A stretch of DNA of 64,000 nucleotides from Pseudacidovorax sp. NFM-22 (GTDB lineage Bacteria; Pseudomonadota; Gammaproteobacteria; Burkholderiales; Burkholderiaceae_C). Positions 9,691 through 24,750 of the stretch are shown piece after piece; the first letter of the stretch is position 1, and every line of letters starts with the position of its first letter. The notes below the pieces were generated by a model, which saw nothing but the letters and a program-made list of their open reading frames with translations, was not told the DNA's origin and did no database searches. The stretch lies in the NCBI RefSeq assembly GCF_021401245.1, contig NZ_JACBFY010000005.1:186001-250000 (forward strand), written 5' to 3'. Made by a program: the position numbers and the translations under genes.

Positions 9691-9691
9691 C

Positions 9692-11845
9692 ATGCGCCTG
9701 CCCCGCCAATTGCCGCGCTTCAGCGCGGCCGAGCTGCTTTTTTCCGCGAAATGCTTCGCCGCGGCCATGCTGGCCATGACCGTGGCCAGTTGGGCCGGCC
9801 TGCCCCGGCCCTTCTGGGCGCTGATGACCACCTACATCGTGGCCAATCCGCTGGCCGGCGCGGTGCGCTCCAAGGCGGTGTTCCGCCTGCTCGGCACGCT
9901 GCTGGGCTGCGCAGCCACGCTGCTGCTGGTGCCGGCCCTGGTCGATGCGCCCGAGCTGCTCACGCTGGCGCTGGCCCTGTGGGTGGCGCTGTGTCTGTTC
10001 GTCTCGCTGCTCGACCGCACGCCGCGCTCCTATCTCTTCATGCTGGCTGGCTATTCGGCGGCGCTGATCGGCTTTCCGTCGGTGGGCGCGCCGCTGGGCG
10101 TGTTCGACACGGCCTCGGCCCGGGTGCAGGAGATCGCCATCGGCATCGTCTGCGGCACGCTGGTGCACAGCCTGGTGTGGCCGGTGAGCATGGCGCCCAC
10201 GCTGGTCGGGCTGATGGACCGCACGCTGGCCGATGCGGGCGCCTGGCTGCGCGGCATGGTGCAGGCCGCGCCGAATGCCGCCGCCGGCCGGCAGGCCGCG
10301 CGCCGCAAGCTGGCCGGCGACATCTCGCAACTGCGCGTGATGGCCACGCATGTGCCCTTCGACACCAGCCACCTCAAGTGGACGGCGTCCGCCGTGCGGG
10401 CCCTGCAGCACGAGGTGGCGGCGCTCACGCCCTTCGCCTCGGCCGTGGACGACCGGCTGCAGGCCCTGCGCGACGCCGACGGCCGGCTGCCTGCCGATGT
10501 GGAACGCACCGTGGGCGAGGTGCTCGCCCGCCTGGCCGACAGCGGCCGCACCGCGCCCGGCAGCGCGCCCACGCCCCTGTCCGACACCGCCTTGGCCGAA
10601 CTCCACACCACCGCCCGGAGCCTGGGCGACACCACGCCCCAGGCCGATGCCTGGACGCTGGCCCTGCGCACCGGCCTGGCCGTGCGGCTGGAAGCCCTGA
10701 TCGACGCCTGGGCCGCCTGCGTGCAGTTGCGCCAGCAGATCGACGCCGGCCTGGCCGGCCGCCCGGTGCCGCTGCCTGCGACCACCGGCCGCGCCGCACC
10801 GGCGGCGCGCGACGTGCTGCACCGCGACGTGGGCATGGCCGCCTGGTCCGCGCTGGCGGCGGCGCTGGCCATCTGCCTGTGCTCCGCCTTCTGGATCTTC
10901 ACCGGCTGGCCCGGCGGCTCCGCGATGGCCATGATGGCGGCCGTCTTCTGCTCCTTCTTCGCGGGCATGGACGACCCGGCGCCCTCGATCTACGCCTTCC
11001 TGAAGGTGCTGCTGCTGTCGCTGCCGCTGGCGGCCCTGTACGTGCTGGTGCTGATGCCCCTGGTGGTGGACCTGCCCACGCTGGCCCTGGTGTGCGCCCC
11101 GGCCTTCCTGGTGCTGGGCGTCTACCTGGGCCGGCCGGCCACCTTCATGAAGGCGATGGCGCTGCTGCTGTCGGGCGTGATCGGAACGCTCTCGCTGCAC
11201 GACACCGGCCAGGCCGACTTCGCCAGCTTCGTCAACGCCATGATCGGCCAGGTGCTGGGCGTGGCCGCGGCGGCCGTGGTGACGGCGCTGGTGCGTTCGG
11301 TGAGCGCCGACTGGGGCGCACGCCGCATCCAGCGCATGACCTGGCGCGAACTGGGCCGCCTGCCGCGACAGGCCGACGACGCGCAGGCCCGCCTGCATGC
11401 AGCACGCGTGCTCGACCGCATCGGCCTGCTGGCGCCGCGCATCGCGCAGGCCGGCGGCACGGTGGACGGCGTGAATGCCGACGACGCGCTGGTGGACCTG
11501 CGAATCGGCACCGACCTGCATGCCCTGCGCCGCCATGCCGCGCTGCTGCCGGGCCGGCTGGGGCCGGACATCCTGGCGCAGGTGGCGCGGCTGTTCCGCG
11601 AGCATCCCGCCGGCCTGACCACCGGCCAGGCCGCGCAGGACCGCCCGGCCCTGGCCCGGCGCATCGACGAAGGCCTGCAGGCGCTGCTGCGTTCCGGCAC
11701 GCCGCCCCCCGCTCCAGACCTGGCAGCCGATGCCACCGACGGGCGCCGCGAGCTGCTGGCCGCCCTCGTCGGCCTGCGCCGCAACCTCTATCCCACGCGG
11801 CCCTGGCCGGCCGCGCCTTCAACCCTCCAGGAGGCCCACGCATGA
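9692..11845 (+). CDS. FUSC-family inner-membrane efflux protein (AaeB-like)
   Basis: A 717-residue membrane protein of the fusaric acid resistance (FUSC/AaeB) family. Two hydrophobic blocks (about residues 20-170 and 375-530) flank a soluble middle, the usual FUSC architecture. The start MRLPRQLPR at 9692 follows the MarR stop by one base; a start 21 bp upstream is open but has no visible ribosome site. With the DUF1656, HlyD and outer-membrane genes downstream it would form a tripartite pump for aromatic acids. The substrate is inferred from the family. Confidence 0.88.
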   Translation: MRLPRQLPRFSAAELLFSAKCFAAAMLAMTVASWAGLPRPFWALMTTYIVANPLAGAVRSKAVFRLLGTLLGCAATLLLVPALVDAPELLTLALALWVALCLFVSLLDRTPRSYLFMLAGYSAALIGFPSVGAPLGVFDTASARVQEIAIGIVCGTLVHSLVWPVSMAPTLVGLMDRTLADAGAWLRGMVQAAPNAAAGRQAARRKLAGDISQLRVMATHVPFDTSHLKWTASAVRALQHEVAALTPFASAVDDRLQALRDADGRLPADVERTVGEVLARLADSGRTAPGSAPTPLSDTALAELHTTARSLGDTTPQADAWTLALRTGLAVRLEALIDAWAACVQLRQQIDAGLAGRPVPLPATTGRAAPAARDVLHRDVGMAAWSALAAALAICLCSAFWIFTGWPGGSAMAMMAAVFCSFFAGMDDPAPSIYAFLKVLLLSLPLAALYVLVLMPLVVDLPTLALVCAPAFLVLGVYLGRPATFMKAMALLLSGVIGTLSLHDTGQADFASFVNAMIGQVLGVAAAAVVTALVRSVSADWGARRIQRMTWRELGRLPRQADDAQARLHAARVLDRIGLLAPRIAQAGGTVDGVNADDALVDLRIGTDLHALRRHAALLPGRLGPDILAQVARLFREHPAGLTTGQAAQDRPALARRIDEGLQALLRSGTPPPAPDLAADATDGRRELLAALVGLRRNLYPTRPWPAAPSTLQEAHA

Positions 11846-12057
11846 CCGGCGAAGCCACGTTCTATGGCGTCTACGTCCCCTGGCTGCTGGTGCTGGCCGT
11901 GGTGGCCTGGGGCCTGTGCTGGGGCGCGCGCCGCCTGCTCGGCGCCCTGGGCGTCTACCGCTGGGTCTGGCATGCCGCCCTGTTCGACACCGCGCTCTAT
12001 GTGCTGATCCTCTTCCTGCTGAGCCGACTGACGGCCGCCCAAGGATTCCTCTCATGA
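11842..12057 (+). CDS. DUF1656 small membrane protein (AaeX-like)
   Basis: A 71-residue protein with two hydrophobic helices (VPWLLVLAVVAWGLCWGA and LFDTALYVLILFLLSRL), typical of the DUF1656/AaeX family that always accompanies FUSC and HlyD efflux genes. It starts with ATG overlapping the FUSC stop (ATGA), with CAGGAGG about 12 bases upstream, and ends overlapping the HlyD start (ATGA). It is probably an accessory subunit of the pump; its exact role is unknown in the family. Confidence 0.88.
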   Translation: MTGEATFYGVYVPWLLVLAVVAWGLCWGARRLLGALGVYRWVWHAALFDTALYVLILFLLSRLTAAQGFLS

Positions 12058-13106
12058 CAACGACTGCAACGACAACGACGACACGGAGCCGCGCGCTGGC
12101 GGCCCAGTCCGCCCGGGTGCTGCTGACCCTGGGCATGGTGGCCCTGGCCGTCTGGGCTGGCCTGCGCCTGTGGGACCACTACGAACTCGCGCCCTGGACG
12201 CGCGACGGCCGCGTGCGCGCCAACGTCGTGCAGGTGGCGCCCGACGTGTCGGGCCTGGTGAGTGCCGTGCGCGTGCAGGACAACCAGGCCGTCAAGGCGG
12301 GCGAGGTGCTGTTCGAGATCGACCCGGCGCGCTTTGCCCTCGCCGTGCAGCAGGCGCGCGTGGGCGTGCAGTCGGCGCAGGTGAGCCTGGCGCAGGCCCG
12401 CCGCGAGGACGCCCGCAACGCCAGCCTGTCCGACCTGGTGCCGCGCGAGCTGCGCGAGCAGTCCCGCGCCCGGGTGGACGCTGCGGCCGCCACCCTGGCA
12501 CGCGCCGAGGTCGAGCTGCACACGGCCGAGCTCAACCTGCAGCGCGCCACGGTGCGGGCGCCGGTCGATGGCTGGGTCACCAACCTGGAGCTGCGCACCG
12601 GTGCCTATGCCGCCGCCGGCCGCGGCGCCATGGCCGTGGTGGACCGCGGCTCCTTCTACGTCGAAGGCTATTTCGAGGAGACCAAGCTGGCCCGCATCCA
12701 CCCCGGCGACGCGGTGCGCGTGACGCCCATGGGCAGCCGCGTGCCGCTGGCCGGCCGGGTGCAGAGCATTGCCGCCGGCATCGCCGACCGCGACCGCTCC
12801 ACCGGCGCCAACCTGCTGCCCAGCGTCAACCCCACCTTCAACTGGGTGCGGCTGGCGCAGCGCGTGCCGGTGCGGGTGCAGCTGGACGCGCAGCCGGACG
12901 CCACGGGCCTGGTGGCGGGCCAGACCGTGCTGGTCGAGGTGGTGGCGCAGGGCGATGCCGCGGCGGCGCACGGCACGGCGTCCCCCGCGCGCGAACACGC
13001 CCCTGCGGCCGACGCCGGGGCCGCCCTGGCCGCCCCGCAGGACCAGGGCCATGCCGGGCCGGCCACGACGGGCCACGGCGATCGCGCCCAAGGGGGCCGG
13101 GCATGA
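12054..13106 (+). CDS. HlyD-family periplasmic adaptor (AaeA/EmrA-like)
   Basis: A 350-residue membrane-fusion protein. After a Thr-rich start there is one N-terminal membrane anchor (VLLTLGMVALAVWAGL). Then come the split lipoyl/barrel-sandwich half-motifs (RVRANVVQVAPDVSGLVSAV and APVDGWVTNLELRTGAYA) around a coiled-coil hairpin. It links the FUSC pump to the outer-membrane factor. A His/Ala-rich low-complexity tail follows about residue 300. It overlaps both neighbours by four bases (ATGA). Confidence 0.9.
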   Translation: MTTTATTTTTRSRALAAQSARVLLTLGMVALAVWAGLRLWDHYELAPWTRDGRVRANVVQVAPDVSGLVSAVRVQDNQAVKAGEVLFEIDPARFALAVQQARVGVQSAQVSLAQARREDARNASLSDLVPRELREQSRARVDAAAATLARAEVELHTAELNLQRATVRAPVDGWVTNLELRTGAYAAAGRGAMAVVDRGSFYVEGYFEETKLARIHPGDAVRVTPMGSRVPLAGRVQSIAAGIADRDRSTGANLLPSVNPTFNWVRLAQRVPVRVQLDAQPDATGLVAGQTVLVEVVAQGDAAAAHGTASPAREHAPAADAGAALAAPQDQGHAGPATTGHGDRAQGGRA

Positions 13107-14569
13107 CCCGGCGCCCCGACCGTACGGCCGCCGCCTTCGGCCGACGCGCACCCGCCCTGCTGGGTGCGCTGCTGCTGGCCGGCTGCGGCAGCTTGGCCGT
13201 GGGCCCCGACTACCAGGTGCCGCCACAGGCCGCGGTGCAAAACCCAGCTGCGGCCCAGCCTTTCCGCGAAGCACAGGCCCCGGGCGCCCAGGCCGCCGCC
13301 ACGGCCGAGCCGTTGCCGGCACGCTGGTGGCACCTGTTCCGCGATCCGACGCTCGACACGCTGGTGCAGGAAGCGCTCGCGCACAACACCGACCTGCGCG
13401 TGGCCGCCGCCAACCTGGAACGCCAGCAGGCCACCCTGGCGCAGGTGCGCGCCGAGGAGCAGCCGCAGCTGTCGGTGTCCGGCGGTCCGGCCTTCGGCCA
13501 TGTCTCGGGCCTGTCGGAGCTGGCGCCCGGTGTCAGCCCGCCCGACCAGTTCGCCTACAGCCTGGGCGCGGGCCTGTCGTACCAGGTCGACGTGGTCGGC
13601 GAGCTGCGCCGCGCGGCCGAGGCGGCGCACGCCGACACCGCGGCCGCCGCAGCCGCGGTGGACCTGGCCCGCGTCAATGCCGCGGCCGGTACCGCGCGCG
13701 CCTATGCGACCGCCTGCGCCACCGGCCAGCAGCTGAAGGTGGCCGAGCACTCCGTCGCCCTGCAGAAGGAACAGCTGGCCGTGGTGCAGCGGCTGCACGA
13801 CGCCGGTCGTGCGGGCGCCACCGACCTCGCCCGCTCGCGCGCGCTGCTGGCCCAGCTGCAGGCCGCCCCGCCTGCGCTGCGCGCGCAGCGCCAGGCCGCG
13901 CTCTACCAGCTGGCCGCCTGGCTGGGCCGCACGCCCGGTGCGCTGCCGGCCGAGGTGCAGCAATGCGCCACCGTGCCCCAGGTGGCCGGCGCGCTGCCGG
14001 TGGGCGACGGCGCGGCCTTGCTGCGCCGCCGGCCCGACATCCGGCGCAGCGAACGGCAGCTGGCCGCCGCCACGGCCCGCATCGGCGTGGCCACGGCCCA
14101 GCTCTATCCCAAGGTGTCGCTGGGCCTGTCGGCCAGCTCGTCCGGTCCGGCCAACGACTTCCTGGGCCGGGACACCTTCGCCTGGAACATCGGCCCGCTG
14201 ATCCGCTGGAGCCTGCCCCACACCGGCGCCGCGCGCGCCCGCATCGCCGGGGCCAAGGCCTCGGCCCGGATGGCGCTGGCGAGCTTCGACGGCACCGTGC
14301 TGCAAGCGCTGCGCGAAACCGAGACCGCCCTCTCCACCTACCGGCAGGAGCTGGTCGGCGTAGAGGCGCTCCAGCGGGCGCGCGACGACAGCGCGCAGGT
14401 CGCCAGTCAGGCACAGCGCCTGTACGTGGGCGGGCGCAGCGCCTACCTGGACACGCTGGACGCCCAGCGCTCGCTGGCCAGTGCCGAGGCCAGCCTGGCC
14501 GCCGCGCAGACGCGCGTGGCGCAGGAGCAGGTCGCCGTCTTCATGGCGCTGGGCGGTGGCTGGGAGTGA
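13103..14569 (+). CDS. Outer-membrane efflux lipoprotein (NodT/OprM family)
   Basis: A 488-residue outer-membrane factor with lipobox LLLAGCG after a short N-terminal hydrophobic run. It has the conserved GPDYQVP and WWHLFRDPTLDTLV starts, and two OEP repeats rich in heptads (RRRPDIRRSERQLAAATARIGVA). As a TolC-like trimer it would form the exit duct of the FUSC/HlyD pump. It is the last gene of the operon and overlaps the adaptor by ATGA. Confidence 0.9.
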   Translation: MTRRPDRTAAAFGRRAPALLGALLLAGCGSLAVGPDYQVPPQAAVQNPAAAQPFREAQAPGAQAAATAEPLPARWWHLFRDPTLDTLVQEALAHNTDLRVAAANLERQQATLAQVRAEEQPQLSVSGGPAFGHVSGLSELAPGVSPPDQFAYSLGAGLSYQVDVVGELRRAAEAAHADTAAAAAAVDLARVNAAAGTARAYATACATGQQLKVAEHSVALQKEQLAVVQRLHDAGRAGATDLARSRALLAQLQAAPPALRAQRQAALYQLAAWLGRTPGALPAEVQQCATVPQVAGALPVGDGAALLRRRPDIRRSERQLAAATARIGVATAQLYPKVSLGLSASSSGPANDFLGRDTFAWNIGPLIRWSLPHTGAARARIAGAKASARMALASFDGTVLQALRETETALSTYRQELVGVEALQRARDDSAQVASQAQRLYVGGRSAYLDTLDAQRSLASAEASLAAAQTRVAQEQVAVFMALGGGWE

Positions 14570-14938: not shown

Positions 14939-15168
14939 GGCGACCTCCTGAGGCATGGCTGCGGAAATCGGGACGGGCCCTTTTGCAGCCATGAAGGCAC
15001 TGTTAAGCGCGTCCAGCCACGCCCATGTCGGCAGCCCCAGTGGCACCCTGTAGGCCGCCGGGAGACACACCCTGTCGCCAAGTGCCAGGGCCGACGCCGG
15101 TCGCCTGGCATTTAGACTCGCCAGCTTCTCCTCACAACAAGGCGCCCCCGAGGCGCCCGTACTCCTCC
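14939..15168. other. Intergenic region before the DUF2384-like gene
   Basis: A 230-bp region between two divergent genes. It holds one clear inverted repeat, TGCCAGG at 15083-15089 and CCTGGCA at 15104-15110, followed by TTTAGACT. DUF2384-containing antitoxin-type proteins often bind palindromes at their own promoters, so this could be an operator. No good -35/-10 pair was identified. Confidence 0.35.
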
Positions 15169-15633
15169 ATGACAGCACGTGCCTCGAGCGTCGAAGCACT
15201 GGAAGCCGAAATCGCGCGCCTCACCCAGGAGCGCCGCGACCTCGAACGCCAGCAGCGGCAATTGCGGGTCGACGAACTCAAGGCCCTGGTCGACCACTTC
15301 GCCCAGCAGTTGGGCGCCGCCGGTTTCGGTCTGCAGGATGGCATCGACGCCCTGCAGGCGCGAACCCGGCCGGCACCCCCGCCCGTCGAACAGCCCGCGC
15401 GGCACTCGGTCATCAAGCCCGCCCCCTTCGTGACGGCACCCAAGTCGCAGCCGCGCCCGCCGATGGACGCTGTGCACCTGCGCGCCCAAAGCGTGCTGGG
15501 CAGCGACGCCATCGACTGGCTCCAGCGGGCGCATCCGCTGCTGGGCGGCATGACACCGACGCAGATGGCCGCCACGCCGCGCGGCGAGGAAAAGGTGCTG
15601 GCCCTGCTGGCCGCCTACGCACGCGGCGCCTGA
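15169..15633 (+). CDS. Coiled-coil (H-NS-like) protein with C-terminal DUF2384-like domain
   Basis: A 154-residue protein. Residues about 5-55 form a charged coiled coil (EAEIARLTQERRDLERQQ) reminiscent of the H-NS oligomerisation region. A Pro-rich linker (65-100) follows. The last 50 residues (VLGSDAIDWLQRAHPLLGG, then MTPTQMAATPRGEEKV) match the pattern of the DUF2384/MbcA-ParS-Xre toxin-binding domain. No Xre helix-turn-helix is seen and no toxin gene lies beside it. The last 49 bases lie in a direct repeat found again at 20772-20888. It may be an orphan antitoxin-like or nucleoid-associated protein. Confidence 0.65.
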   Translation: MTARASSVEALEAEIARLTQERRDLERQQRQLRVDELKALVDHFAQQLGAAGFGLQDGIDALQARTRPAPPPVEQPARHSVIKPAPFVTAPKSQPRPPMDAVHLRAQSVLGSDAIDWLQRAHPLLGGMTPTQMAATPRGEEKVLALLAAYARGA

Positions 15634-15692
15634 GGCGCGTTTCGGCTTCCCGGGCCAGCAGCAGCCTGGCCCAGCTGGCGCAGCAGCTCGGC
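15585..15692. repeat. Direct repeat copy 1 (left border of catabolic block)
   Basis: About 108 bp, nearly identical to 20772-20888. It contains the 3' end of the DUF2384-like gene (AAYARGA stop) followed by what would be, on the minus strand, the last residues of a LysR protein (LLRQLGQAAAGP ... NAPQAPRA). The copies differ by few substitutions and by small insertions totalling 9 bp. The LysR part here is an orphan fragment; its complete copy is at 20802-21767. Confidence 0.85.
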
Positions 15693-15721
15693 TGCGCATG
15701 GCATCCGGCACCGCCGCGGCT

Positions 15722-16540
15722 TCAAGTGGAAAGCTGACCCGACAACCGCCGCGTCAGCTGTCTCGCCACCTCTGCCACCGCGCGCGCCGCGCTGTCTTCC
15801 CAAGCGCTGGACAGGCGGTCCTGGTGATCCGTCACTGTGATCGCGAGCACCGGCTGGCCGTGCATGTCGAACACGGGGGCCGAAAAGGCATTCACCCCGG
15901 GAATGGGGCTGCCCACCGCACGCACCACCCCACGTTGCCGCATCTCTTCGCGGATGCGCGTCAGAGCCGCTTCCCGTCCGTCGAACCCCGTGGCATCCAT
16001 CCTGCCCAACGGGCCCGCAATGGCCTGCCGCAGCGTGTCGTCCGGCATCGCTGAGGCGAATGCACGCCCGGTCGCAGTGTCGAACAGGGACAGCACGCTG
16101 CCCACCCGCAGCGCCACATGCAGGGGCTGCCGGGCCTCGATGAGCCGAACGACAGTCGGGCCGAAATTGCCCCACACCGAAAGCGCAACAGCATGGCCCG
16201 TCTGCGCCGCGAGCTGCAGGACCGCCGGCTCCGCGGCCTTGAGCGGATCCAGCCGCTGAAGGCATGCCAGCCCGATCTTCAGGGCCGCCGGCCCCAGGTC
16301 GTACCGCCCGCTTGCATCCTGCTCGACGAGGCCCAGTCGTCCGTAGCTGACGAGGTACGGATGCGCACGCGATGGCGTGAGTCCGGCCAAGGCGGCCAGG
16401 TCTTTGAGGTTCATGGCGCCTTCGCCCTCGGCAAGCGCCAGCAGCAGCCGCCCGCCAACTTCGACGGACTGAACCGCGCGCTGGAGCTTGGCGTCGGGCT
16501 GTTCTTCAGAGGCGGGAGCCGCCGGCTTCTTCGTTCTCAT
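15722..16540 (-). CDS. IclR-family transcriptional regulator
   Basis: A 272-residue regulator starting MRTKKPAAPAS. The N-terminal winged helix-turn-helix runs through MNLKDLAALAGLTPSRAHPY (about residues 43-62). The C-terminal effector domain contains ALSVWGNFGPTVVRL and IPGVNAFSAPVFD, typical of IclR ligand-binding domains. An upstream in-frame ATG would add 18 residues but overlaps the promoter region. It is divergent from the MBL/monooxygenase/Bug genes and probably controls them in response to an aromatic or organic acid. Confidence 0.9.
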   Translation of the reverse strand: MRTKKPAAPASEEQPDAKLQRAVQSVEVGGRLLLALAEGEGAMNLKDLAALAGLTPSRAHPYLVSYGRLGLVEQDASGRYDLGPAALKIGLACLQRLDPLKAAEPAVLQLAAQTGHAVALSVWGNFGPTVVRLIEARQPLHVALRVGSVLSLFDTATGRAFASAMPDDTLRQAIAGPLGRMDATGFDGREAALTRIREEMRQRGVVRAVGSPIPGVNAFSAPVFDMHGQPVLAITVTDHQDRLSSAWEDSAARAVAEVARQLTRRLSGQLST

Positions 16541-16544
16541 GGAA

Positions 16545-16556
16545 CAAACGAGTTTG
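16545..16556. promoter_or_regulatory. Inverted repeat CAAAC-GA-GTTTG (candidate IclR site)
   Basis: A 12-bp inverted repeat with perfect 5-bp arms, overlapping the -35 box of the promoter facing the MBL gene and only 5 bp before the IclR ATG. That position suits repression of both divergent genes by the IclR protein. A second inverted repeat, CTTTG ... CAAAG, lies at 16606-16621. Confidence 0.45.
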
Positions 16557-16582
16557 ACATACGCACACGACGACCGTACATT
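16554..16582 (+). promoter_or_regulatory. Sigma-70 promoter for the MBL/monooxygenase/Bug genes
   Basis: Consensus -35 TTGACA at 16554-16559 and -10 TACATT at 16577-16582, separated by 17 bp. The start would fall about 50 bp before the MBL-fold ATG at 16641, which has AAGGAGAC upstream. It is one of the clearest promoters in the window and overlaps the CAAAC/GTTTG inverted repeat. Confidence 0.7.
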
Positions 16583-16640
16583 CTTTTCCAACAAATGCGT
16601 TCGCCCTTTGCGAATTCAAAGTCCTTTCAAGGAGACAGCC

Positions 16641-17594
16641 ATGAGCAAGACCTTCGCATCCGCCGCCGACCTCGAAGAAAAGAAGGTCAGCTTCACCCAG
16701 CTCTCGGAGCACGCCTGGGCCTACACCGCCGAGGGCGACCCCAACACCGGCGTGATCATTGGCGACGACGCCGTGCTGGTGGCCGACACCCAGGCCACGC
16801 CCGCGATGGCGCAGGACGTGATCCGCCGCATCCGCGAAGTCACCGACAAGCCCATCCGCTATGTGGTGCTCACGCATTACCACGCCGTGCGCGTCCTTGG
16901 CGCCTCGGCCTACGGCGCGCAGCAGGTGATCGCCAGCCAGGACACGCGCGACCTGATCGTCGAACGCGGCGAGGCCGACAAGGCCAGCGAGATCGGGCGT
17001 TTCCCGCGCCTGTTCCGCGACGTCGAATCGGTGCCCGCGGGCATGACCTGGCCCACGATCACCTTCACCGGCCGCATGAGCCTGTGGCTCGGCAAGCTCG
17101 AGGTGCAGCTGCTGCAGCTGGGCCGCGGCCACACCAAAGGGGACACCGTGGTCTGGCTGCCCGGCGAGAAGACGCTTCTTTCTGGTGACCTGGTGGAGTT
17201 CGACGCCACCCCCTATGCCGGCGACGCCTACTTCCGCGACTGGCCGGCCACGCTGGACAACATCGCCGCCCTTCAACCGCAGGCGCTGGTGCCGGGCCGC
17301 GGCCCGGCCCTGCTCGGAGAGGCGCGGGTCCAGGCCGGCCTCGCGTCCACGCGCGACTTCATCCGCGACCTGTGGGCCAGCGTGCAGGAGGGCGTCGCCG
17401 CCGGCAAGGACCTGCGCGCCACCTACGAGCACAGCTTCTCCACGCTGCAGCCCAAGTACGGGCATTGGGTCATCTTCAACCACTGCATGCCCTTCGACGT
17501 GACACGGGCCTACGACGAAGCCACGCAGCATGCCGATCCGCGCATCTGGACCGCAGAACGTGACCGTCAGATGTGGGAGGCGCTCGAAGGCTGA
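16641..17594 (+). CDS. MBL-fold metallo-hydrolase-like protein with altered metal motif
   Basis: A 317-residue protein with the metallo-beta-lactamase fold: strand pattern VIIGDDAVLVADT, then LTHYHAVR (H79, H81), GRGHTKGD (H164) and LLSGDLVEF (D183). The usual HxHxDH motif reads HYHAVR, so the Asp and last His are replaced by V83 and R84. This removes two expected zinc-site-2 ligands, leaving H79, H81, H164 and D183. It precedes an FAD monooxygenase, a DUF2783 gene and a Bug receptor; ring-opening or lactone hydrolysis is possible but unproven. Confidence 0.85.
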   Translation: MSKTFASAADLEEKKVSFTQLSEHAWAYTAEGDPNTGVIIGDDAVLVADTQATPAMAQDVIRRIREVTDKPIRYVVLTHYHAVRVLGASAYGAQQVIASQDTRDLIVERGEADKASEIGRFPRLFRDVESVPAGMTWPTITFTGRMSLWLGKLEVQLLQLGRGHTKGDTVVWLPGEKTLLSGDLVEFDATPYAGDAYFRDWPATLDNIAALQPQALVPGRGPALLGEARVQAGLASTRDFIRDLWASVQEGVAAGKDLRATYEHSFSTLQPKYGHWVIFNHCMPFDVTRAYDEATQHADPRIWTAERDRQMWEALEG

Positions 17595-17691
17595 ACAGAG
17601 CGCGACGGGCGTGCATTGCGCCCACCCCGGCTGGCGACGTGCACGCCCGATCGCCGCGCCGCGAAGACAAGAACGACAGGAGACATCGGCC

Positions 17692-19341
17692 ATGAAGCCA
17701 TCCGACATCCCGCCCCATCGCTTTCGCGGCACCGGCGAGCAGGTGCAGGCCATCCAGTTCGACTACCGGCGCTCGCCGGACCAGGAGGCGCCCTCGCCCG
17801 TGCGCCACCCGGTCGTCATCGTGGGCGCCGGCCCCGTGGGGCTGACGCTGGCCATCGACCTGGCCCAGCGCGGCCAGCCCGTGCTGGTGGTGGACAACGA
17901 CGACCGGCTGTCCACGGGCTCGCGTGCGCTGTGCTTTGCCAAGCGCACGCTGGAGATCTGGGACCGGCTGGGCGTCGGCGACGCCATGGTGGCCAAGGGC
18001 GTGTCCTGGAACCTGGGCAAGGTGTTCCTGCGCGACCAGCAGCTCTACCAGTTCAACCTGCTGCCGGAGGACGGCCACGAGCGCCCCGCCTTCATCAACC
18101 TGCAGCAGTACTACTGCGAGGCCTACCTGGTGGAGCGCGCGCTGCAGCTGCCCGGGCTGGAGATCCGCTGGAAGAACACGCTCGCTGGCATCGCACCCCG
18201 CCCGGATGGCGCCACCTTGACCCTGGACACGCCCGACGGCCCCTACCGCATCGAGGCAGACTGGGTCGTCGCCTGCGACGGCTCGCGCTCGCCGACGCGG
18301 CAGCTGATGGGCCTGGAGAGCCAGGGCCGCGTGTTCCGCGATCGCTTCCTGATCGCCGATGTGCGCATGACGGCCGACTTTCCGACCGAGCGCTGGTTCT
18401 GGTTCGACCCGCCCTTCCATCCCAACCAGAGCGTGCTGCTGCACCGCGAGCCCGACAACGTCTGGCGCATCGACTTCCAGCTCGGCTGGGATGCCGACCC
18501 GCAGGCGGAGCGCCAGCCCGAGAAGGTCATCGCGCGCGTGCGTGCACTGCTCGGTCCCGACGCCGAGTTCAGCCTCGAATGGGCCAGCGTCTACACCTTC
18601 GCCTGCCAGCGGATGGAGCGCTTCGTGCATGGGCGGGTCGTCTTCGCCGGAGACAGCGCCCACGGCGTCTCGCCCTTCGGTGCGCGGGGCGCCAACAGCG
18701 GCGTGCAGGATGCGGACAACCTCGGCTGGAAGCTCGACCACGTGATGCGCGGCCAGGCGAGCGCCACGCTCATCGACACCTATGGCAGCGAGCGCGAGGC
18801 GGCGGCGGACGAGAACATCCTCCACTCCAGCCGAGCCACCGACTTCATCACGCCCAAGAGCGAGATCAGCCGGCTCTTCCGCGACCAGGTGCTGGCCCTC
18901 GCCCGCTCGCACGAGTTCGCCCGCCGGCTGGTCAACAGCGGAAGGCTGTCCGTGCCCTGCGTGCTGCGGGCGTCGCCGCTGAACACGCCCGACGCCGAGG
19001 CCTTCGACAGTGCGATGGTGCCCGGCGCGCCGCTGTGCGATGCGCCCCTGCAGACACCCCAAGGCGACCCGGCCTGGCTGCTGCGCAGCCTGGGTCCGGA
19101 CTTCACGCTGCTCGTCTTCGGCGAGGCGCCGCATTGGGTTCGCGAACTGCCAGGGGTGGCCGCGCGCTGCCTGGGGCAGGAGCTGATCGACGCGCAGGGC
19201 GTGCTCGCCCGCCGCCTCGATGCGCAGCCGGGCACCGCCTACCTCGTGCGGCCCGACCAGCACGTGTGCGCGCGCTGGCGTCAGCCATCGCTGGAGGCCG
19301 TGCGCGCCGCACTGCGCCTCGCCATTGGCCTGCGCGACTGA
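17692..19341 (+). CDS. FAD-dependent aromatic-ring monooxygenase (PheA/TfdB/MhpA type)
   Basis: A 549-residue flavoprotein hydroxylase. The FAD-binding GxGxxG is in VIVGAGPVGLTLAIDLAQRG. The DG motif is in VACDGSRSPTRQLMG and the GD motif in RVVFAGDSAHGVSPFGARG. A C-terminal thioredoxin-like domain follows about residue 430, as in phenol-type hydroxylases. The start MKPSDIPPHR has CAGGAGAC upstream. It sits between the MBL-fold protein and a DUF2783 gene. The substrate, probably a hydroxylated aromatic acid, cannot be read from the sequence. Confidence 0.9.
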   Translation: MKPSDIPPHRFRGTGEQVQAIQFDYRRSPDQEAPSPVRHPVVIVGAGPVGLTLAIDLAQRGQPVLVVDNDDRLSTGSRALCFAKRTLEIWDRLGVGDAMVAKGVSWNLGKVFLRDQQLYQFNLLPEDGHERPAFINLQQYYCEAYLVERALQLPGLEIRWKNTLAGIAPRPDGATLTLDTPDGPYRIEADWVVACDGSRSPTRQLMGLESQGRVFRDRFLIADVRMTADFPTERWFWFDPPFHPNQSVLLHREPDNVWRIDFQLGWDADPQAERQPEKVIARVRALLGPDAEFSLEWASVYTFACQRMERFVHGRVVFAGDSAHGVSPFGARGANSGVQDADNLGWKLDHVMRGQASATLIDTYGSEREAAADENILHSSRATDFITPKSEISRLFRDQVLALARSHEFARRLVNSGRLSVPCVLRASPLNTPDAEAFDSAMVPGAPLCDAPLQTPQGDPAWLLRSLGPDFTLLVFGEAPHWVRELPGVAARCLGQELIDAQGVLARRLDAQPGTAYLVRPDQHVCARWRQPSLEAVRAALRLAIGLRD

Positions 19342-19356
19342 GGCCGGAGACCCGCC

Positions 19357-19554
19357 ATGCTCAATACGCAACCGAACATCGCCCGCTTCGACGACTTCTA
19401 CGAAGCACTGTTGGCCGCACACCAGGACCTGCCGCTCGACCAGAGCCACGCGCTGAACGCCCGTCTGGTGCTGCTGCTGGCCAACCACATCGGCGATCTC
19501 GACGTGCTGCGCGATGCGCTCGCGCGGGCCCGCGAATCCGCCTCCACGCGCTGA
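19357..19554 (+). CDS. DUF2783 small protein
   Basis: A 65-residue acidic, helical protein (MLNTQPNIARFDDFYEALL ... LVLLLANHIGDLDVLRDAL). It matches the DUF2783 pattern as I recognise it: a short protein next to FAD monooxygenase genes. It begins 15 bp after the monooxygenase stop, with CCGGAGACC just upstream. It may be a small partner of the flavoprotein; no activity is known to me. Confidence 0.75.
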   Translation: MLNTQPNIARFDDFYEALLAAHQDLPLDQSHALNARLVLLLANHIGDLDVLRDALARARESASTR

Positions 19555-19656
19555 CCTCAAGGGCGCCGGACAGGCACATGGGGCCATGGCCGGCCACGGA
19601 CGGGCCATGCCGTGGTGCTGCCCCCTTTTTCACGACAACACAACGGAGACAAAACC

Positions 19657-20619
19657 ATGATCAATCGCAAGCAGTTCCTCGGCCTCGCCGCGGCGGTCCT
19701 TGGTGCACCGGCCTGGGCGCAGAGCACGGGCAAGCCGGTCGAATGGGTGGTGGGCTATGCCGCCGGAGGCGGCTCCGACGTGGTGGCCCGCACCATTGCC
19801 GAAGCCATGGGCCGCACCCTCAACCGCCCCATCGTCATCAACAACAAGCCCGGCGCCGGCACCAACATCGCCGCCGACTACGTGGCCCGGTCGAAGGACT
19901 TCGGCAACCTCCTCTTCACGGCTGACTTCGCCACGCTGGCCGCCAACCCCTTTCTCTTCAGCAAGCTGAGCTACGACGCGCAGAAGGCGTTCCAACCGGT
20001 CGGGCTGCTGGTGCGCTTTCCCATGTTCCTGGTGGTGGGCAGTGAGGTGCCGGCGGACAACCTGCAGCAGTTCACGGCCTGGACCAAGGCGCAGAAGGAT
20101 CCAGTGAGCTGGGGCTCTGCCGGCCCTGGCAGTCCGCACCACTTGGTCGGCGAACTCTTCCGCGAGCAGACCAGCCTGGCGATGCAGCACGTGCCTTACC
20201 GCGGCGCCGCGCCCGCCATGCAGGACGTGCTGGCAGGACAGATCCCCGCCATGTGGATCGACAGCGCCACCGTGCTGCCCTTCCTTGCCGGCAAAAAGGT
20301 GAAGATCATCGGCGTCGCATCGGCCAGGCGCCTGGATCTGTTGCCGGAGGTGCCCACCTTCGCCGAGCAGGGCCTCAAGGATTTCGAGGGCTACGCGTGG
20401 CAGGGTCTGGTCGTGCCGACCGGTACCCCGGCCGAGGCCACGGCCGCCTTCGCCGATGCCTTGCAGAACGCGCTGGGGTCTACGCAGGTTCGCGCCCGCC
20501 TGCAGGCTCTGGGCGTCGAGCCGATGCCTGGCACGCCCGACCAGATGGCACGCTTCTCCGCTGCCGAACGGGACAAGTGGGGCGCGGTCATTCGGCGTGC
20601 CGGCGTCAGGCTGGACTGA
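19657..20619 (+). CDS. Bug-family (TctC) tripartite tricarboxylate receptor
   Basis: A 320-residue periplasmic binding protein of the Bug family. The signal peptide MINRKQFLGLAAAVLG ends at AWAQ. The family regions are VGYAAGGGSDVVARTIAEA, GSAGPGSPHHLVGEL and HVPYRGAAPAMQDVLAGQ. CGGAGAC lies 8 bp before the ATG. No TctA/TctB permease is in the window, so like most Bug proteins it is an orphan receptor. Its place in the operon suggests that it captures the monooxygenase substrate. Confidence 0.9.
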   Translation: MINRKQFLGLAAAVLGAPAWAQSTGKPVEWVVGYAAGGGSDVVARTIAEAMGRTLNRPIVINNKPGAGTNIAADYVARSKDFGNLLFTADFATLAANPFLFSKLSYDAQKAFQPVGLLVRFPMFLVVGSEVPADNLQQFTAWTKAQKDPVSWGSAGPGSPHHLVGELFREQTSLAMQHVPYRGAAPAMQDVLAGQIPAMWIDSATVLPFLAGKKVKIIGVASARRLDLLPEVPTFAEQGLKDFEGYAWQGLVVPTGTPAEATAAFADALQNALGSTQVRARLQALGVEPMPGTPDQMARFSAAERDKWGAVIRRAGVRLD

Positions 20620-20801
20620 GCGACTTTTTGCGTCGGTCGAATGAGTGACGCAGACCCGTAGAGGCCGAGCGCCGGGACATGCCGCCGGAGAGCCGCCACG
20701 GGCAGAGATGCTGCGCACGACCGAGGCCGCTGACGCCCAACTCGCGCGCGGCACCCTGACGGGCCGCTTGACGAGGCAAAGGTGCGGGCCCTGCTGGCCG
20801 C
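20620..20801. pseudogene. Remnant region: truncated DUF2384-like 3' end
   Basis: A 182-bp stretch with no intact gene. Near its right end, in frame, DEAKVRALLAAYARGA and a stop at 20818-20820 mirror the end of the DUF2384-like protein at 15169-15633 (GEEKVLALLAAYARGA). The rest of that gene is missing. It overlaps the LysR stop codon tail-to-tail, exactly as the fragment at the left repeat does. Confidence 0.6.
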
Positions 20802-20888
20802 CTACGCACGCGGCGCCTGAGGCGCGCGTTTCGGCTTCGGGGCGCGCGGGCCGGCAGCAGCCTGGCCCAGCTGGCGCAGCAGCTCGGC
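20772..20888. repeat. Direct repeat copy 2 (right border of catabolic block)
   Basis: About 117 bp matching 15585-15692. It holds the 3' end of a DUF2384-like gene and the true 3' end of the LysR gene. Within the DUF2384-derived 46 bases from GGTGC to GGCGCG only one base differs. The two copies frame the IclR/MBL/monooxygenase/DUF2783/Bug block in direct orientation. Confidence 0.85.
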
Positions 20889-21767
20889 GCGCAACGCTTC
20901 GGCCACTGCAGAAGCCGCCGTCGACAGGCTCCGCTCCTGCCGCATCACCTGGCCGATGGGCCGCTGCACATCCGGCGCCGTCAGCCGCCGCTGCACCACC
21001 GGCCCGCCCAGCGCCACCTGCGCCGCCAGGGCGGGCAGCACCGACACCCCCAGCCCGGCCGCCACCATCGCATTGATGGTGGCCAGGTGCTCCACCTCGA
21101 AACGCGGCGCGAAGCGCTGTCCCAATGAGAGCAGCGCCGCCTCGGCGTACTGCCGCACGCTGGTGGGTGCGGGCATCGAGATGTGCGGCAGGCCCGCCAC
21201 CTCGGCCCAGCGCAGCGGGCCGCGCCGCGCAGCCAGCGCATGGTCCGCGGGCAGCAGCAGCACCAGCGGATCGCTGGCCAGCGTCTCGTAGGCCAGGTCG
21301 GCATAGGCCGGGTTCTCGGCCGTGAGGGCGAAGTCGACCTGGCCCGCGCGCACCAGGTCGAAGGAGGCGCCCGACAGCGAATCGACCACGCCCAGCTGCA
21401 CGCCCGGGTGCGCCGCCATGAAGCGCGCGAACACCGGCGGCACCACCGTCGCCGCCAGCGAGGGCAGCGCCGCGATGCGCACCCGGCCCTCGCGCAGCTC
21501 GACCACGTCGCGCACCGCGCTGGCGGCCGTCTCGGCCTGGGCCCGCAGGATGCGCGCATGCGCCAGCAGCGCCTGCCCGGCATCGGTGAGCTGCACGCTG
21601 CGCGTGTTGCGGGCGAACAGGCGCGCGCCCAGCGTCTCCTCCAGCCGGCCGATCACGCCCGAGACGGCCGACTGCGACAGGTGCACCCGCGCCGCCGCGC
21701 GCCGGAAGTTCAGCGTCTCGGCCAGTTCGATGAAGACCTGCAGTTCGCGCAGCGACAGATTGATCAT
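20802..21767 (-). CDS. LysR-family transcriptional regulator
   Basis: A 321-residue LysR regulator. The N-terminal helix-turn-helix is in LNFRRAAARVHLSQSAVSG, followed by the linker helix (LEETLGARLFARNTRSVQL) and a type 2 periplasmic-binding-like effector domain. It ends with the basic tail PKRAPQAPRA; its TAG lies inside the DUF2384-like fragment on the other strand. It is divergent from the dehydrogenase/BKACE/Bug genes, the usual arrangement for LysR control of an adjacent catabolic operon. Confidence 0.9.
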   Translation of the reverse strand: MINLSLRELQVFIELAETLNFRRAAARVHLSQSAVSGVIGRLEETLGARLFARNTRSVQLTDAGQALLAHARILRAQAETAASAVRDVVELREGRVRIAALPSLAATVVPPVFARFMAAHPGVQLGVVDSLSGASFDLVRAGQVDFALTAENPAYADLAYETLASDPLVLLLPADHALAARRGPLRWAEVAGLPHISMPAPTSVRQYAEAALLSLGQRFAPRFEVEHLATINAMVAAGLGVSVLPALAAQVALGGPVVQRRLTAPDVQRPIGQVMRQERSLSTAASAVAEALRAELLRQLGQAAAGPRAPKPKRAPQAPRA

Positions 21768-21771
21768 GGTT

Positions 21772-21789
21772 GCCGATCAGTCTATCGGC
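21772..21789. promoter_or_regulatory. LysR-type operator GCCGAT-N6-ATCGGC
   Basis: Perfect 6-bp arms with a 6-bp spacer, 5 bp before the LysR ATG in the 68-bp divergent region. The half-site CCGATCAGT (21773-21781) recurs in direct orientation at 21803-21811, 30 bp away or about three helical turns. This fits the recognition-site plus activation-site layout of LysR regulators. Confidence 0.6.
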
Positions 21790-21835
21790 CAATAGCGTTG
21801 GACCGATCAGTGCCATCTTCCTAGACTGCGCCGCC

Positions 21836-22822
21836 ATGACGACCCCTTCCCTCATCCGCCCCGCGGGCACCGCCGTGATCGGCGGCGGCACCATGGGCGC
21901 CGACGTCGCCGTGGTGCTCAGCCGCGGCGGCCTGCCCGTCACCGTGGTGGAACGCGATGCCGCCAAGGCGGCCCGCCTGCCGGCCTACATCGGCGCCCAG
22001 CTCGAAGCCGCGGGCTGCATGGCTCATGCCGGACCGGTCACCGTCGTCCACCAGCTGGAGGACGTGGCCTGGGCCGACGTTGGCCTGGTGGTCGAATGCA
22101 TCGTCGAGCAGCTGGCGCCCAAGCAGCAGCTCTTCGCGCGGCTGGTCGAGCTGGCGCCGCCCTCGGCCCTGCTGACCAGCAACAGCTCGGGCCTGCCCAT
22201 CAGCCGCATCGCCGAGGGCCTGCCCACGCGCGGGCGCATGTTCGGCCTGCACTTCTTCATGCCCGCGCACCTGGTGCCGCTGGTGGAGGTGGTGATGGGC
22301 CCCGACAGCGACACCGGCGCCGCCCAGGCCCTGGTGCAGACCATGCGCCGCTGTGCCAGCGTGCCCGTGCTGGTGCGCAAGGACCGGCCGGGCTTCCTGG
22401 CCAACCGGCTGCAGCATGCGCTGGCGCGCGAGGCCTTCGCGCTGCTGGACGATGGCGTGGCCAGTGCCGAGGACATCGATGCCGCGGTGCGCTTCGGCTT
22501 CGGCTTCCGCTTCCTGGCGGCCGGGCCGATCCTGCAGCGCGACCATGCCGGTCTGGACGTGCACTGCGCCGCCGCCACCACCATCTACCCCAGCCTGTGC
22601 AACGACGCCGAACCCGCCCAGGTGCTGCAGCGGCAGGTGCAGGCCGGCCGGGTGGGCATGAAGGCCGGTGCCGGCTTCAGCGACTGGCCCGAAGCCGAGC
22701 GCGCTGCCGAACGGGCCCGCTACGACCGCCTGCTGCGCGCCGGCCTTCACCTGCTGGCCGACGAACTGCCGCCGCTGCCGGGTGCAGCCCGCGCCCCTTC
22801 CTCCGACCGGAACCCGACGTGA
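21836..22822 (+). CDS. 3-hydroxyacyl-CoA dehydrogenase-family protein (L-carnitine dehydrogenase-like)
   Basis: A 328-residue NAD-dependent dehydrogenase. The Rossmann motif is VIGGGTMGADVAVVLSRGG, then SNSSGLPISRIAEGL, the HFFMPAHLVPLVEVV catalytic region (His in GLHFFMP), and a C-terminal helical domain (RPGFLANRLQHALAREA). Length and layout resemble L-carnitine dehydrogenase and 3-hydroxybutyryl-CoA dehydrogenase. The BKACE gene next to it favours oxidation of a free beta-hydroxy acid to a beta-keto acid. It overlaps the BKACE start (GTGA) and is divergent from LysR. Confidence 0.85.
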   Translation: MTTPSLIRPAGTAVIGGGTMGADVAVVLSRGGLPVTVVERDAAKAARLPAYIGAQLEAAGCMAHAGPVTVVHQLEDVAWADVGLVVECIVEQLAPKQQLFARLVELAPPSALLTSNSSGLPISRIAEGLPTRGRMFGLHFFMPAHLVPLVEVVMGPDSDTGAAQALVQTMRRCASVPVLVRKDRPGFLANRLQHALAREAFALLDDGVASAEDIDAAVRFGFGFRFLAAGPILQRDHAGLDVHCAAATTIYPSLCNDAEPAQVLQRQVQAGRVGMKAGAGFSDWPEAERAAERARYDRLLRAGLHLLADELPPLPGAARAPSSDRNPT

Positions 22823-23643
22823 CCGCCGATCCCCTCATCCTCACCGTGGCGCCCAACGGCGCCTACAAGCAGCACAGCGACCATCCCGCCGTGCCGCTCA
22901 CGCCCCAGGCCCTGGCCGATACCGCCCGCCGCTGCCTGGACGCCGGCGCCGCCATGCTCCACCTGCACATCCGTGATGCCGAGGGCCGCCACAGCCTGGA
23001 CGTCGAGGGCTACCGCGAAGCCCTGCGCGTGGTGCGCCAGGCCGTGGGCGATGCGATGGTGCTGCAGGTGACCAGCGAAGCGGCGCGCGTCTACCAGGCG
23101 CCGCAGCAGATCGCCATGGTGCGCGAACTGCAGCCCGAAGCCGTCTCCATCGGCCTGCGCGAGGTGGACGTGCCCGCCGTAGGCGAGGCGGGCCTGGCCG
23201 CCTTCTTCGCCGAGCTGGCAGCGCGCGGCACCATGGTCCAGGTGATCCTCTACGACGCGGCCGACGTGGCGCGCTGGCAGGCGCTGCGCGCGGCCGGCGC
23301 CATTCCCGACGCGCCGTGGTTCCTGCTCTTCGTGCTGGGCCGCTACAGCGCAGGCCAGACCTCCGACCCGCGCGACCTGCTGCCCTTCCTGGCCGCCCAC
23401 GGCGATGGCCCCGAGCCCTGGGCCGTGTGCGCCTTCGGCCCGACCGAGCAGGCCTGCGTCACCGCCGCGGCGGCCTTCGGCGGCCATGCGCGGGTGGGCT
23501 TCGAGAACAACCTGCGGCTGCGCGACGGCCGCCTGGCGCCCGACAACACCGCCCTGGTGGCGCAGGCCGCCGAGGCCGCCGCCACGCTGGGCCGTCCGCT
23601 GGCCACGGCGGCGCAGATCCGCGAGCGCTTCCGGCCGCGCTGA
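22819..23643 (+). CDS. BKACE (DUF849) beta-keto acid cleavage enzyme
   Basis: A 274-residue TIM-barrel enzyme starting with GTG that overlaps the dehydrogenase stop. Zinc ligands H48 and H50 are in LHLHIRDAEG. Other family regions are APNGAYKQHSDHPAVPLTP near the start and HARVGFENNLRLRDG near the end. BKACE proteins condense a beta-keto acid with acetyl-CoA to give acetoacetate and a new acyl-CoA. With the dehydrogenase it forms a two-step route like carnitine degradation (CdhA/CdhC), but no thioesterase gene is present. Confidence 0.88.
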   Translation: MTADPLILTVAPNGAYKQHSDHPAVPLTPQALADTARRCLDAGAAMLHLHIRDAEGRHSLDVEGYREALRVVRQAVGDAMVLQVTSEAARVYQAPQQIAMVRELQPEAVSIGLREVDVPAVGEAGLAAFFAELAARGTMVQVILYDAADVARWQALRAAGAIPDAPWFLLFVLGRYSAGQTSDPRDLLPFLAAHGDGPEPWAVCAFGPTEQACVTAAAAFGGHARVGFENNLRLRDGRLAPDNTALVAQAAEAAATLGRPLATAAQIRERFRPR

Positions 23644-23682
23644 CGCCACGCCCCCTTCCCCACAACAACCGGAGACAACCCC

Positions 23683-24660
23683 ATGATCGATCGCCGCCAA
23701 TGGCTGGCGGGCGCGGCCGCCGGCCTGCTCGCCCCTTCTCTTGCCTTCGCCCAGGCGGAGGCCCCCAAGGGCCCCGTGCGCATCGTGGTGCCCTACCCGC
23801 CCGGCGGCCCCACCGACCTGATGGCCCGGCTGCTGCAGCCGCAGCTGCAGCGCCGCCTGAACACCACCGTCATCGTCGACAACCGCGGCGGCGCGGGCGG
23901 CAACCTGGGCAGCGCCTACGTGGCGCGGCAGGCCCCGGCCGATGGCCTGACGCTGCTGCTCGCGGCCAGCGGGCCGATGGCCGTCAATGCGGCGCTCTAC
24001 AAGTCCATGCCCTTCAACGCGCAGGACGACCTGCTGCCGGTGGTGCAGCTGTCGGCCTTTCCGCTGGTGCTGGAGGTGCATCCCTCGGTCAAGGCCCGCA
24101 CGCTGAAGGAATTCATCACCTACGCGGGCAGCCAGAAGGCGCCGCTGAACTTCGCCTCGGCTGGCAGCGGCACGCCCCAGCACCTGGCTGGCGAGCTGTT
24201 CGCCCGCGAGGCCAAGGTGCCGCTCACCCATGTGCCCTACCGCGGCGCCGGCCCGGCCCTCAACGACATGCTGGGCGGCCAGGTGCCGCTGATGTTCGAC
24301 ATCCTGGCCAGCTCGCTGCAGCACCTGCAGGCGGGCAAGCTGGTGCCCATCGCCGTCACCTCGGCCACGCGCAGCCCCGCGCTGCCGCAGGTGCCGACCA
24401 TGGCCGAGGCGGGGCTGCCCGGCTTCGAGGTGACGGCCTGGCATGGCATCGCCGTGCGCAGCGGCACGCCCGCCGCCACGGTGCAGCGGCTCAATGCCAC
24501 CTTCCTGGACATCTTTGCCGACCCGGCCTTCCGCAAGTCCTGGGAGGCGCTGGGCACACCGGTAGTGGCCGGCACGCCCGAGGCCTTCGGCCAGCTGATC
24601 CGCAGCGAAACGGCACGGCTGGGCCGCATCGTGCGGGAGACGGGGGCGACGGCGGATTGA
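23683..24660 (+). CDS. Bug-family (TctC) tripartite tricarboxylate receptor
   Basis: A 325-residue periplasmic receptor. The signal MIDRRQWLAGAAAGLL ends at AFAQ. Family regions are VPYPPGGPTDLMARLLQPQ, ASAGSGTPQHLAGELF and HVPYRGAGPALNDMLGGQ. It has ACCGGAGAC before the ATG, 39 bp after BKACE. It probably binds the compound degraded by the dehydrogenase/BKACE pair. No membrane subunits are encoded nearby. Confidence 0.9.
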   Translation: MIDRRQWLAGAAAGLLAPSLAFAQAEAPKGPVRIVVPYPPGGPTDLMARLLQPQLQRRLNTTVIVDNRGGAGGNLGSAYVARQAPADGLTLLLAASGPMAVNAALYKSMPFNAQDDLLPVVQLSAFPLVLEVHPSVKARTLKEFITYAGSQKAPLNFASAGSGTPQHLAGELFAREAKVPLTHVPYRGAGPALNDMLGGQVPLMFDILASSLQHLQAGKLVPIAVTSATRSPALPQVPTMAEAGLPGFEVTAWHGIAVRSGTPAATVQRLNATFLDIFADPAFRKSWEALGTPVVAGTPEAFGQLIRSETARLGRIVRETGATAD

Positions 24661-24750
24661 GGAGCACCGGGTGCCCGGCGATGTCGGCTGATCCACCGCC
24701 AGGAGTGACGGGCCTGACGAGCGGCAAGCTCAGCCGCCGCTGTGGCCCAT

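What the first reader, a model, noticed from the sequence alone, without database searches (positions are those of the whole stretch)
15585..20888. Catabolic block of about 5.2 kb bracketed by 108-117 bp direct repeats inside a convergent gene pair
The left copy (15585-15692) holds the intact end of the DUF2384-like gene plus an orphan LysR 3' fragment. The right copy (20772-20888) holds an orphan DUF2384-like 3' fragment plus the intact LysR end. Removing the block and one repeat recreates a tail-to-tail pair overlapping at AAYARGA/RAPQAPRA. This looks like integration of a circular molecule carrying a homologous junction, or a duplication with insertion. No integrase or transposase lies inside. 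The block is a complete regulatory and catabolic unit (IclR, MBL, monooxygenase, DUF2783, Bug).
Basis: partly seen in the sequence, partly recalled or inferred. Interest (0 to 1): 0.8.

Follow-up and report, generated by a model that had tools for sequence, protein, structure and literature searches.

The report
Catabolic operon inserted with duplicated junction
A common five-gene operon, probably catabolic, has landed between two tail-to-tail overlapping genes in Pseudacidovorax and left a roughly 140-base copy of the junction on each side, so both neighbours stayed whole; the same junction is empty in two relatives and holds a different gene cluster in a third.

Summary
Copies 15576-15714 and 20763-20909 match at 126 of 148 columns, the only such direct repeat in the window. 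The genus is Pseudacidovorax. Of 15 genus genomes, 6 hold the LysR orthologue: 3 carry the block here, 2 (RU35E, NS331) have the predicted empty junction with one copy, and 1 (a MAG) holds a different 10.9-kb catabolic insert in the same junction, again with an orphan DUF2384 3' end beside LysR. NS331 carries the same operon elsewhere, without long terminal repeats. The operon is widespread and ordinary. The two copies resemble each other (84-97%) more than either resembles the relatives' junctions (68-81%), so the duplicated stretch is the carriers' own junction. The LysR stop codon lies inside the DUF2384 3' end in the window and in both empty sites, so only an insertion that copies the junction can separate the genes unharmed. 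[quoted passage not shown] How the ends joined, and whether the block excises, is not shown. New member of a known kind.

The parts
15169..15633 (+). DUF2384-like gene (C-terminal Xre/MbcA/ParS toxin-binding domain), intact, left neighbour of the junction
   Evidence: Pfam PF09722 28.6 bits on the longer ORF from 15025; orthologues at 78-99% in 5 other genus genomes
15576..15714 (+). left copy of the direct repeat (duplicated junction)
   Evidence: 126 of 148 columns identical to 20763-20909; single copy in G008 and G005
15634..15720 (-). orphan 3' piece of the LysR gene, ending next to the IclR stop codon; the last bases are uncertain
   Evidence: alignment with the right copy and with empty sites
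15722..16594 (-). IclR-family regulator (ORF with TTG start; an in-frame ATG lies near 16540)
   Evidence: Pfam PF01614, PF09339
16554..16582 (+). sigma-70-like promoter between IclR and the metallo-beta-lactamase-fold gene (consensus match only)
   Evidence: 10 of 12 matches; 1 found against a mean of 0.2 in 50 shuffles
16641..17594 (+). metallo-beta-lactamase-fold hydrolase
   Evidence: Pfam PF00753 on the longer ORF from 16488; 96.5% in the G005 copy
17692..19341 (+). FAD-dependent monooxygenase (PRK08132 type)
   Evidence: NCBIfam NF006002, 851.8 bits against cut-off 416
19357..19554 (+). DUF2783 protein
   Evidence: Pfam PF10932
19657..20619 (+). Bug/TctC-type solute-binding protein
   Evidence: Pfam PF03401 on the ORF from 19612
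20620..20762 (.). linker between operon end and right repeat; no similarity above shuffles to the rest of the DUF2384 gene or to the corresponding stretch in G006
   Evidence: 140 and 47 of 300 shuffles score as high
20763..20909 (+). right copy of the direct repeat (duplicated junction)
   Evidence: 99% in G011, 95% in G010
20763..20820 (+). orphan 3' piece of the DUF2384-like gene (certain from about 20774); contains the LysR stop codon 20802-20804
20802..21767 (-). LysR-family regulator, intact, right neighbour; its last codons lie in the DUF2384 3' end
   Evidence: Pfam PF03466, PF00126; 6 of 15 genus genomes at 95-100%

Best explanation
One insertion event, now shared by G000, G010 and G011 by descent or by later exchange of the whole locus, placed a ready-made operon (IclR / MBL fold / FAD monooxygenase / DUF2783 / Bug) in the middle of a convergent, 19-bp-overlapping gene pair. 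[quoted passage not shown] Shown: empty sites, one-copy versus two-copy junctions, the operon elsewhere in a relative, a second unrelated insert in the same junction. Inferred: the first joining was illegitimate or replication-associated (incoming ends joined at two staggered points of the junction, the stretch between being copied), and it survived because the duplication left both DUF2384 and LysR complete. Later the locus was shuffled among strains by ordinary homologous recombination. The repeats could in principle recombine to excise the block and restore the empty site, but no excision was observed.
For: Repeat real and unique in the window. Empty joined pairs in G008 and G005, outgroups to the carriers in a core-DNA tree. 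In the 116-column core L and R are 83.6-97.4% alike, while L or R against G005, G006 or G008 give 68-81%. G005 holds the operon at 81.8%, aligned over 15774-20640, at another place and with no direct repeat above 34 bases around it. Block GC is 68.9% against 73.5-74.4% in the flanks. G006 has a 10.9-kb insert between the same two genes with a 54-bp 83% repeat at its ends; most of its right part lies elsewhere in G000 and G005 and ends within a few bases of the last gene's stop. LysR stop inside the DUF2384 3' end in the window and both empty sites.
Against: The staggered joining leaves no diagnostic trace that I could find; ends are blurred by divergence. The orphan DUF2384 piece begins at nearly the same base in G000 (44-55 bases before its stop) and G006 (36-52), which fits one shared older event or a preferred break point better than two random ones. 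The G006 left side lacks most of the LysR piece. In G011 the efflux genes and block are closer to G000 (97-98%) than its core DNA is (93.9%), so the locus was probably exchanged and its presence in three genomes does not date the insertion. Only 6 junctions are known, two of them from MAGs.
Confidence: 0.6

Rival explanations
1. A circular molecule that already carried the operon and a copy of the DUF2384/LysR junction integrated by a single homologous crossover.
For: Predicts exactly two flanking copies of the junction and intact outer genes. Homologous exchange acts on this locus.
Against: Needs a donor in which operon and junction were already together. The junctions of G005, G006 and G008 are only 65-81% like each other and the carriers. 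The G005 copy of the operon is not next to DUF2384 or this LysR.
Confidence: 0.2
2. One older insertion in a common ancestor of G006 and the carriers made the right-hand junction; the contents were later swapped (operon A in the carriers, insert B in G006).
For: G006 is sister to the carriers (87% support); the orphan DUF2384 piece has a similar start in both.
Against: The DNA just inside the right junction is not detectably related in the two (47 of 300 shuffles score as high); G006 lacks most of the LysR piece on its left side.
Confidence: 0.25
3. Site-specific integration by a recombinase acting in trans, the DUF2384 3' end being an att-like site.
For: Two unrelated inserts in one junction, each leaving a DUF2384 3' end at the far side, as islands that use a gene's 3' end do.
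Against: No recombinase among the five block genes or eight ORFs of insert B searched with Pfam (one of the eight had no match; two more ORFs were read by eye; smaller ORFs not searched). No tRNA in the window, no Rfam match over 15400-21100 and no fold beyond shuffles at the junction. Repeat lengths differ (about 140 and 54).
Confidence: 0.08
4. The block is ancestral and the empty sites are precise excisions by recombination between the repeats.
For: Such recombination would give exactly the one-copy junction. In G010 the right copy has the left-type base at 6 of the 7 core sites where it departs from G000 and G011, which hints at exchange between copies.
Against: Needs two separate losses in successive outgroups plus a replacement in G006, against two gains (tree). 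G005 has a diverged operon elsewhere. The excess of such sites over the flanks is weak (7 of 116 against 5 of 240, Fisher p 0.064).
Confidence: 0.1

Closest known systems
Insertion with long target duplication (Nobusato, Uchiyama, Ohashi, Kobayashi 2000, Gene 259:99; restriction-modification units of Helicobacter pylori)
   Same: Strain-specific gene unit flanked by a long direct repeat of the target, seen by comparing two related genomes (passages read in PMC1643837, and PMC3031569; the 2000 paper itself was not read).
   Different: Cargo here is a presumed catabolic operon, not a restriction-modification unit; target is a tail-to-tail gene overlap; the same junction is used twice.
Microcin H47 genomic island of Escherichia coli (PMC3191183, PMC5426353)
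   Same: Integrase-less 13-kb island flanked by imperfect direct repeats of 146/148 bp at 77% identity, with empty sites in other strains (abstracts, Results part 1 of the first, Discussion of the second).
   Different: There excision and integration were detected by PCR, also without RecA, though the authors could not recover an excised clone; here there are no excision data. Cargo is a microcin system.
Islands integrated at the 3' end of a protein gene by a site-specific recombinase (such as SGI1 at trmE; abstract start of PMC8409611 in the listing)
   Same: Insertion at a gene's 3' end with a direct repeat at the far side (general scheme recalled).
   Different: No integrase found in the block; long, imperfect repeats; two neighbours affected, not one.

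Membership tests
Insertion with long target duplication | direct repeat of target sequence, tens to hundreds of bases, at both ends of the insert | tested here: met
   126 of 148 columns; 54 bp in G006
Insertion with long target duplication | empty site with a single copy in a related genome | tested here: met
   G008 and G005
Insertion with long target duplication | insert absent from, or placed elsewhere in, the empty-site genome | tested here: met
   G005 operon at C243; G008 has no monooxygenase match at E 1e-100
Insertion with long target duplication | no recombinase or transposase in the insert (as I understand the kind; wording partly recalled) | tested here: met
   Pfam on the five block genes
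Integrase-less genomic island of the H47 type | imperfect direct repeats near 150 bp and strains with empty sites | tested here: met
   H47 values
Integrase-less genomic island of the H47 type | excision producing hybrid single-copy junctions | not testable with these tools
   needs PCR or reads
Genomic island with its own site-specific recombinase | integrase gene in the element | tested here: not met
   five block genes; eight ORFs of the G006 insert
Genomic island with its own site-specific recombinase | tRNA or tmRNA target (usual, not obligatory) | tested here: not met
   no tRNA or tmRNA in the window

The most novel reading that the evidence does not exclude
The DUF2384/LysR overlap of Pseudacidovorax is a true recombinase-free landing pad: unrelated catabolic clusters are repeatedly joined there at a preferred break point in the DUF2384 3' end, with the junction copied so that both overlapping genes survive, and the repeats then allow clusters to be lost and swapped. 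Overlapping convergent gene ends would in general act as a filter that lets through only insertions with target duplication.
Probability: 0.15. Interest if true: 0.6.

Novelty: new member of a known kind. Interest (0 to 1): 0.4.

Why it matters
It gives a clean natural case, with empty, filled and differently filled sites, of how a bacterium can gain an operon with no mobile-element enzyme in sight. The overlap argument (only duplicating insertions can separate tail-to-tail overlapping genes without damage) is testable across genomes and could explain where long target duplications are found.

Tried and rejected
Chance or low-complexity similarity: rejected. Assembly artefact: unlikely, three assemblies agree. 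Longer DUF2384 remnant upstream of the right copy: none above shuffles (G000 140 of 300, G006 157 of 300). Common DNA just left of the right copy in G000 and G006: none above shuffles (47 of 300). RNA family, fold or terminator at the junction: none. A 16-base palindromic stretch at the DUF2384 stop matches exactly in 9 of the 182 loci then held, all from carriers and at the repeats, so it is no general signal among them. Terminal repeats at other inserts of the region: none above 10 bases at 24662-30277, none of at least 30 bases at the extra DNA upstream of DUF2384 in G008, none above 34 bases around the operon in G005. Operon on plasmids: 39 of 72,556 records match the monooxygenase at E 1e-100, best listed 63.7%, so no near plasmid source in that collection. 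Solved structure for the monooxygenase: none at E 1e-40. Exchange between copies in G010: suggestive only. The first tree of the LysR-side DNA had a wrong G006 stretch, caught by a paralogous Bug gene, and was redone; support inside that cluster is low (41-87) and its order differs from the core tree.

Literature: searches. For Pseudacidovorax 50 papers hold the name, 15 listings seen, none on this locus by title or start of abstract; DUF2783 gave one paper, not opened. I make no claim that nothing is in print.
Full report
OBSERVATION. The two copies align over 148 columns with 126 matches, 12 mismatches and 10 gap columns: 15576-15714 and 20763-20909. The best of 2,969 random 400-base pairs from the window scored 136 against 184. 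A self-comparison of the 64 kb at E 1e-6 finds no other direct repeat of at least 40 bases at 78% or more. The left copy is the end of the DUF2384-like gene followed by an orphan piece of the LysR 3' end that runs up to the IclR stop codon at 15722. The right copy is an orphan piece of the DUF2384 3' end, certain from about 20774, followed by the intact LysR end.

CONTENT. Pfam and NCBIfam name the block genes IclR regulator, metallo-beta-lactamase fold, FAD monooxygenase (PRK08132 type), DUF2783 and Bug/TctC binding protein; none is a recombinase. In 299 family genomes the monooxygenase has a match at E 1e-180 in 144. I read loci from 15 of those 144, plus the NS331 locus. In the 15: MBL near the monooxygenase in 14, DUF2783 in 14, IclR in 12, a Bug protein of at least 60% identity in 9 (several contigs end there). 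The DUF2384 gene or this LysR appeared in 0 of 16 at 38% identity or more. So the operon is a widespread unit with no tie to this junction. Its substrate is not known; that it is catabolic is inferred from the families.

RELATIVES. The genus is Pseudacidovorax. Of 15 genus genomes, 6 hold the LysR orthologue at 95-100%; the other 9 say nothing about this junction. G010 (MAG Gw_Bodden_bin_280) and G011 (P. intermedius DSM 21352) carry the block colinearly at 96%. G008 (RU35E) and G005 (P. intermedius NS331) have one copy: the counterparts of window 15024-15720 and 20763-24660 overlap in one stretch, the DUF2384 protein ends YARGA and LysR ends QAPRA there. NS331 has the same operon at 81.8% at another place, aligned over window 15774-20640, beside a gene that reads as exonuclease III (by eye), with no direct repeat above 34 bases around it. 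Of the 1,191 bases on its left 381 match G000 at C15:721 kb, while its right flank matches G000 at C15:601 kb, so that arrangement is not in G000.

A SECOND INSERT. G006 (MAG SP217_1) has DUF2384 at C19:21816-22277 and LysR at C19:33169-34131. Between them lie about 10.9 kb of other DNA: LysR, Bug, FAD oxidoreductase, LysR, CoA-transferase III, an ORF without match, Bug and acyl-CoA dehydrogenase by Pfam, then ORFs that read as a second acyl-CoA dehydrogenase and an enoyl-CoA hydratase (by eye). Its right end again carries an orphan DUF2384 3' end in front of LysR; the repeat is 54 bp at 83% (22242-22295 and 33146-33199). The part 26302-33098 is found elsewhere in G000 (95-97%) and G005 (90-91%), in two pieces with about 2 kb of other DNA between them there, and stops within a few bases of the hydratase stop codon at 33092. 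The left part of the insert was not found in those two stretches. So two unrelated clusters, each also known elsewhere in whole or part, sit in one junction.

POLARITY AND HISTORY. A 6.9-kb core tree gives ((((((G000,G010),G011),G006),G008),G005),G004,G003) with 100, 100, 87, 100 and 100% support. Empty is then the ancestral state by parsimony. In the 116-column core of the junction the L and R copies of the carriers are 83.6-97.4% alike, while either against G005, G006 or G008 gives 68-81%; the lower L-R values involve the left copy of G000, which has lost some bases. The duplicated stretch is therefore the carriers' own junction. Block GC is 68.9% against 73.5-74.4% in the flanks. Among carriers, block (97-98%), efflux genes (97%) and LysR side (94-98%) differ to a like degree. 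But G011 is 93.9% like G000 in the core and 97-98% in efflux genes and block: the locus was probably exchanged between these lineages, so three carriers do not date the insertion.

WHY A DUPLICATION. In the window and in both empty sites the LysR stop codon lies inside the DUF2384 3' end, 19 bases overlapping. An insertion between the two coding ends that copies nothing must cut at least one of them. Both inserts seen copied more than the overlap. This is inference: it explains which insertions survive, not how they are made.

MECHANISM. My commitment is an illegitimate or replication-associated joining of incoming ends at two staggered points of the junction (insertion with long target duplication), followed by homologous exchange of the whole locus. 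That exchange is supported: the LysR-to-Bug2 cluster is 93-95% alike between species whose core is 86-89% alike, and identity falls left of about 20960. A homologous circle remains possible. Exchange between the two copies is hinted at in G010, whose right copy has the left-type base at 6 of 7 core sites where it departs from G000 and G011, but against the flanks this excess gives only p 0.064, and the genealogy of the region is mixed.

AGAINST MY READING. The orphan DUF2384 piece starts at nearly the same point in G000 (44-55 bases before its stop) and G006 (36-52), which a shared older insertion with later swap, or a preferred break point, would explain more simply; the DNA just inside is not detectably related. 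G006 lacks most of the LysR piece on its left. Only 6 junctions are known, two from MAGs.

COMPARISON. Insertion with long target duplication was described for restriction-modification units (passages in PMC1643837; PMC3031569; PMC4978471; the founding paper not read). The microcin H47 island has 146/148-bp repeats at 77%, no integrase, and empty sites (PMC3191183 abstract and Results part 1; PMC5426353 abstract and Discussion). The features that sequence can test are met; excision cannot be tested here.

VERDICT. Real, largely explained, a new member of a known kind; the two-fold use of one overlapping gene junction is the part worth following.

Noticed in passing
window 24662-30277: A further insert, absent from G010, G011 and G005, which join 24662 almost directly to 30277. 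GC 60.1% against 69.7% for the window. Its ORFs read like a two-partner secretion transporter and a filamentous-haemagglutinin-like protein in two frames (by eye). No terminal repeats above 10 bases.
   Followed up: partly
window 20960-24660: The LysR/3-hydroxyacyl-CoA dehydrogenase/BKACE/Bug cluster is 93-95% alike between species whose core DNA is 86-89% alike: probably exchanged between species.
   Followed up: partly
L034 (G008) about 9563-14275: About 4.7 kb of extra DNA between the efflux gene and DUF2384 in RU35E, without direct repeats of 30 bases or more; the left side of DUF2384 is variable too.
   Followed up: partly
L165 and L166 (G003, G002): DUF2384 homologues (51-52%) of the deeper branch lie between what read as glutathione peroxidase and RlmN genes (by eye), so the DUF2384 gene seems to have changed place within the genus.
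   Followed up: no
L181 (G000:C15:691234-695341): Two direct repeat pairs (169 bp at 90%, 201 bp at 80%) near the G000 copy of part of insert B.
   Followed up: no
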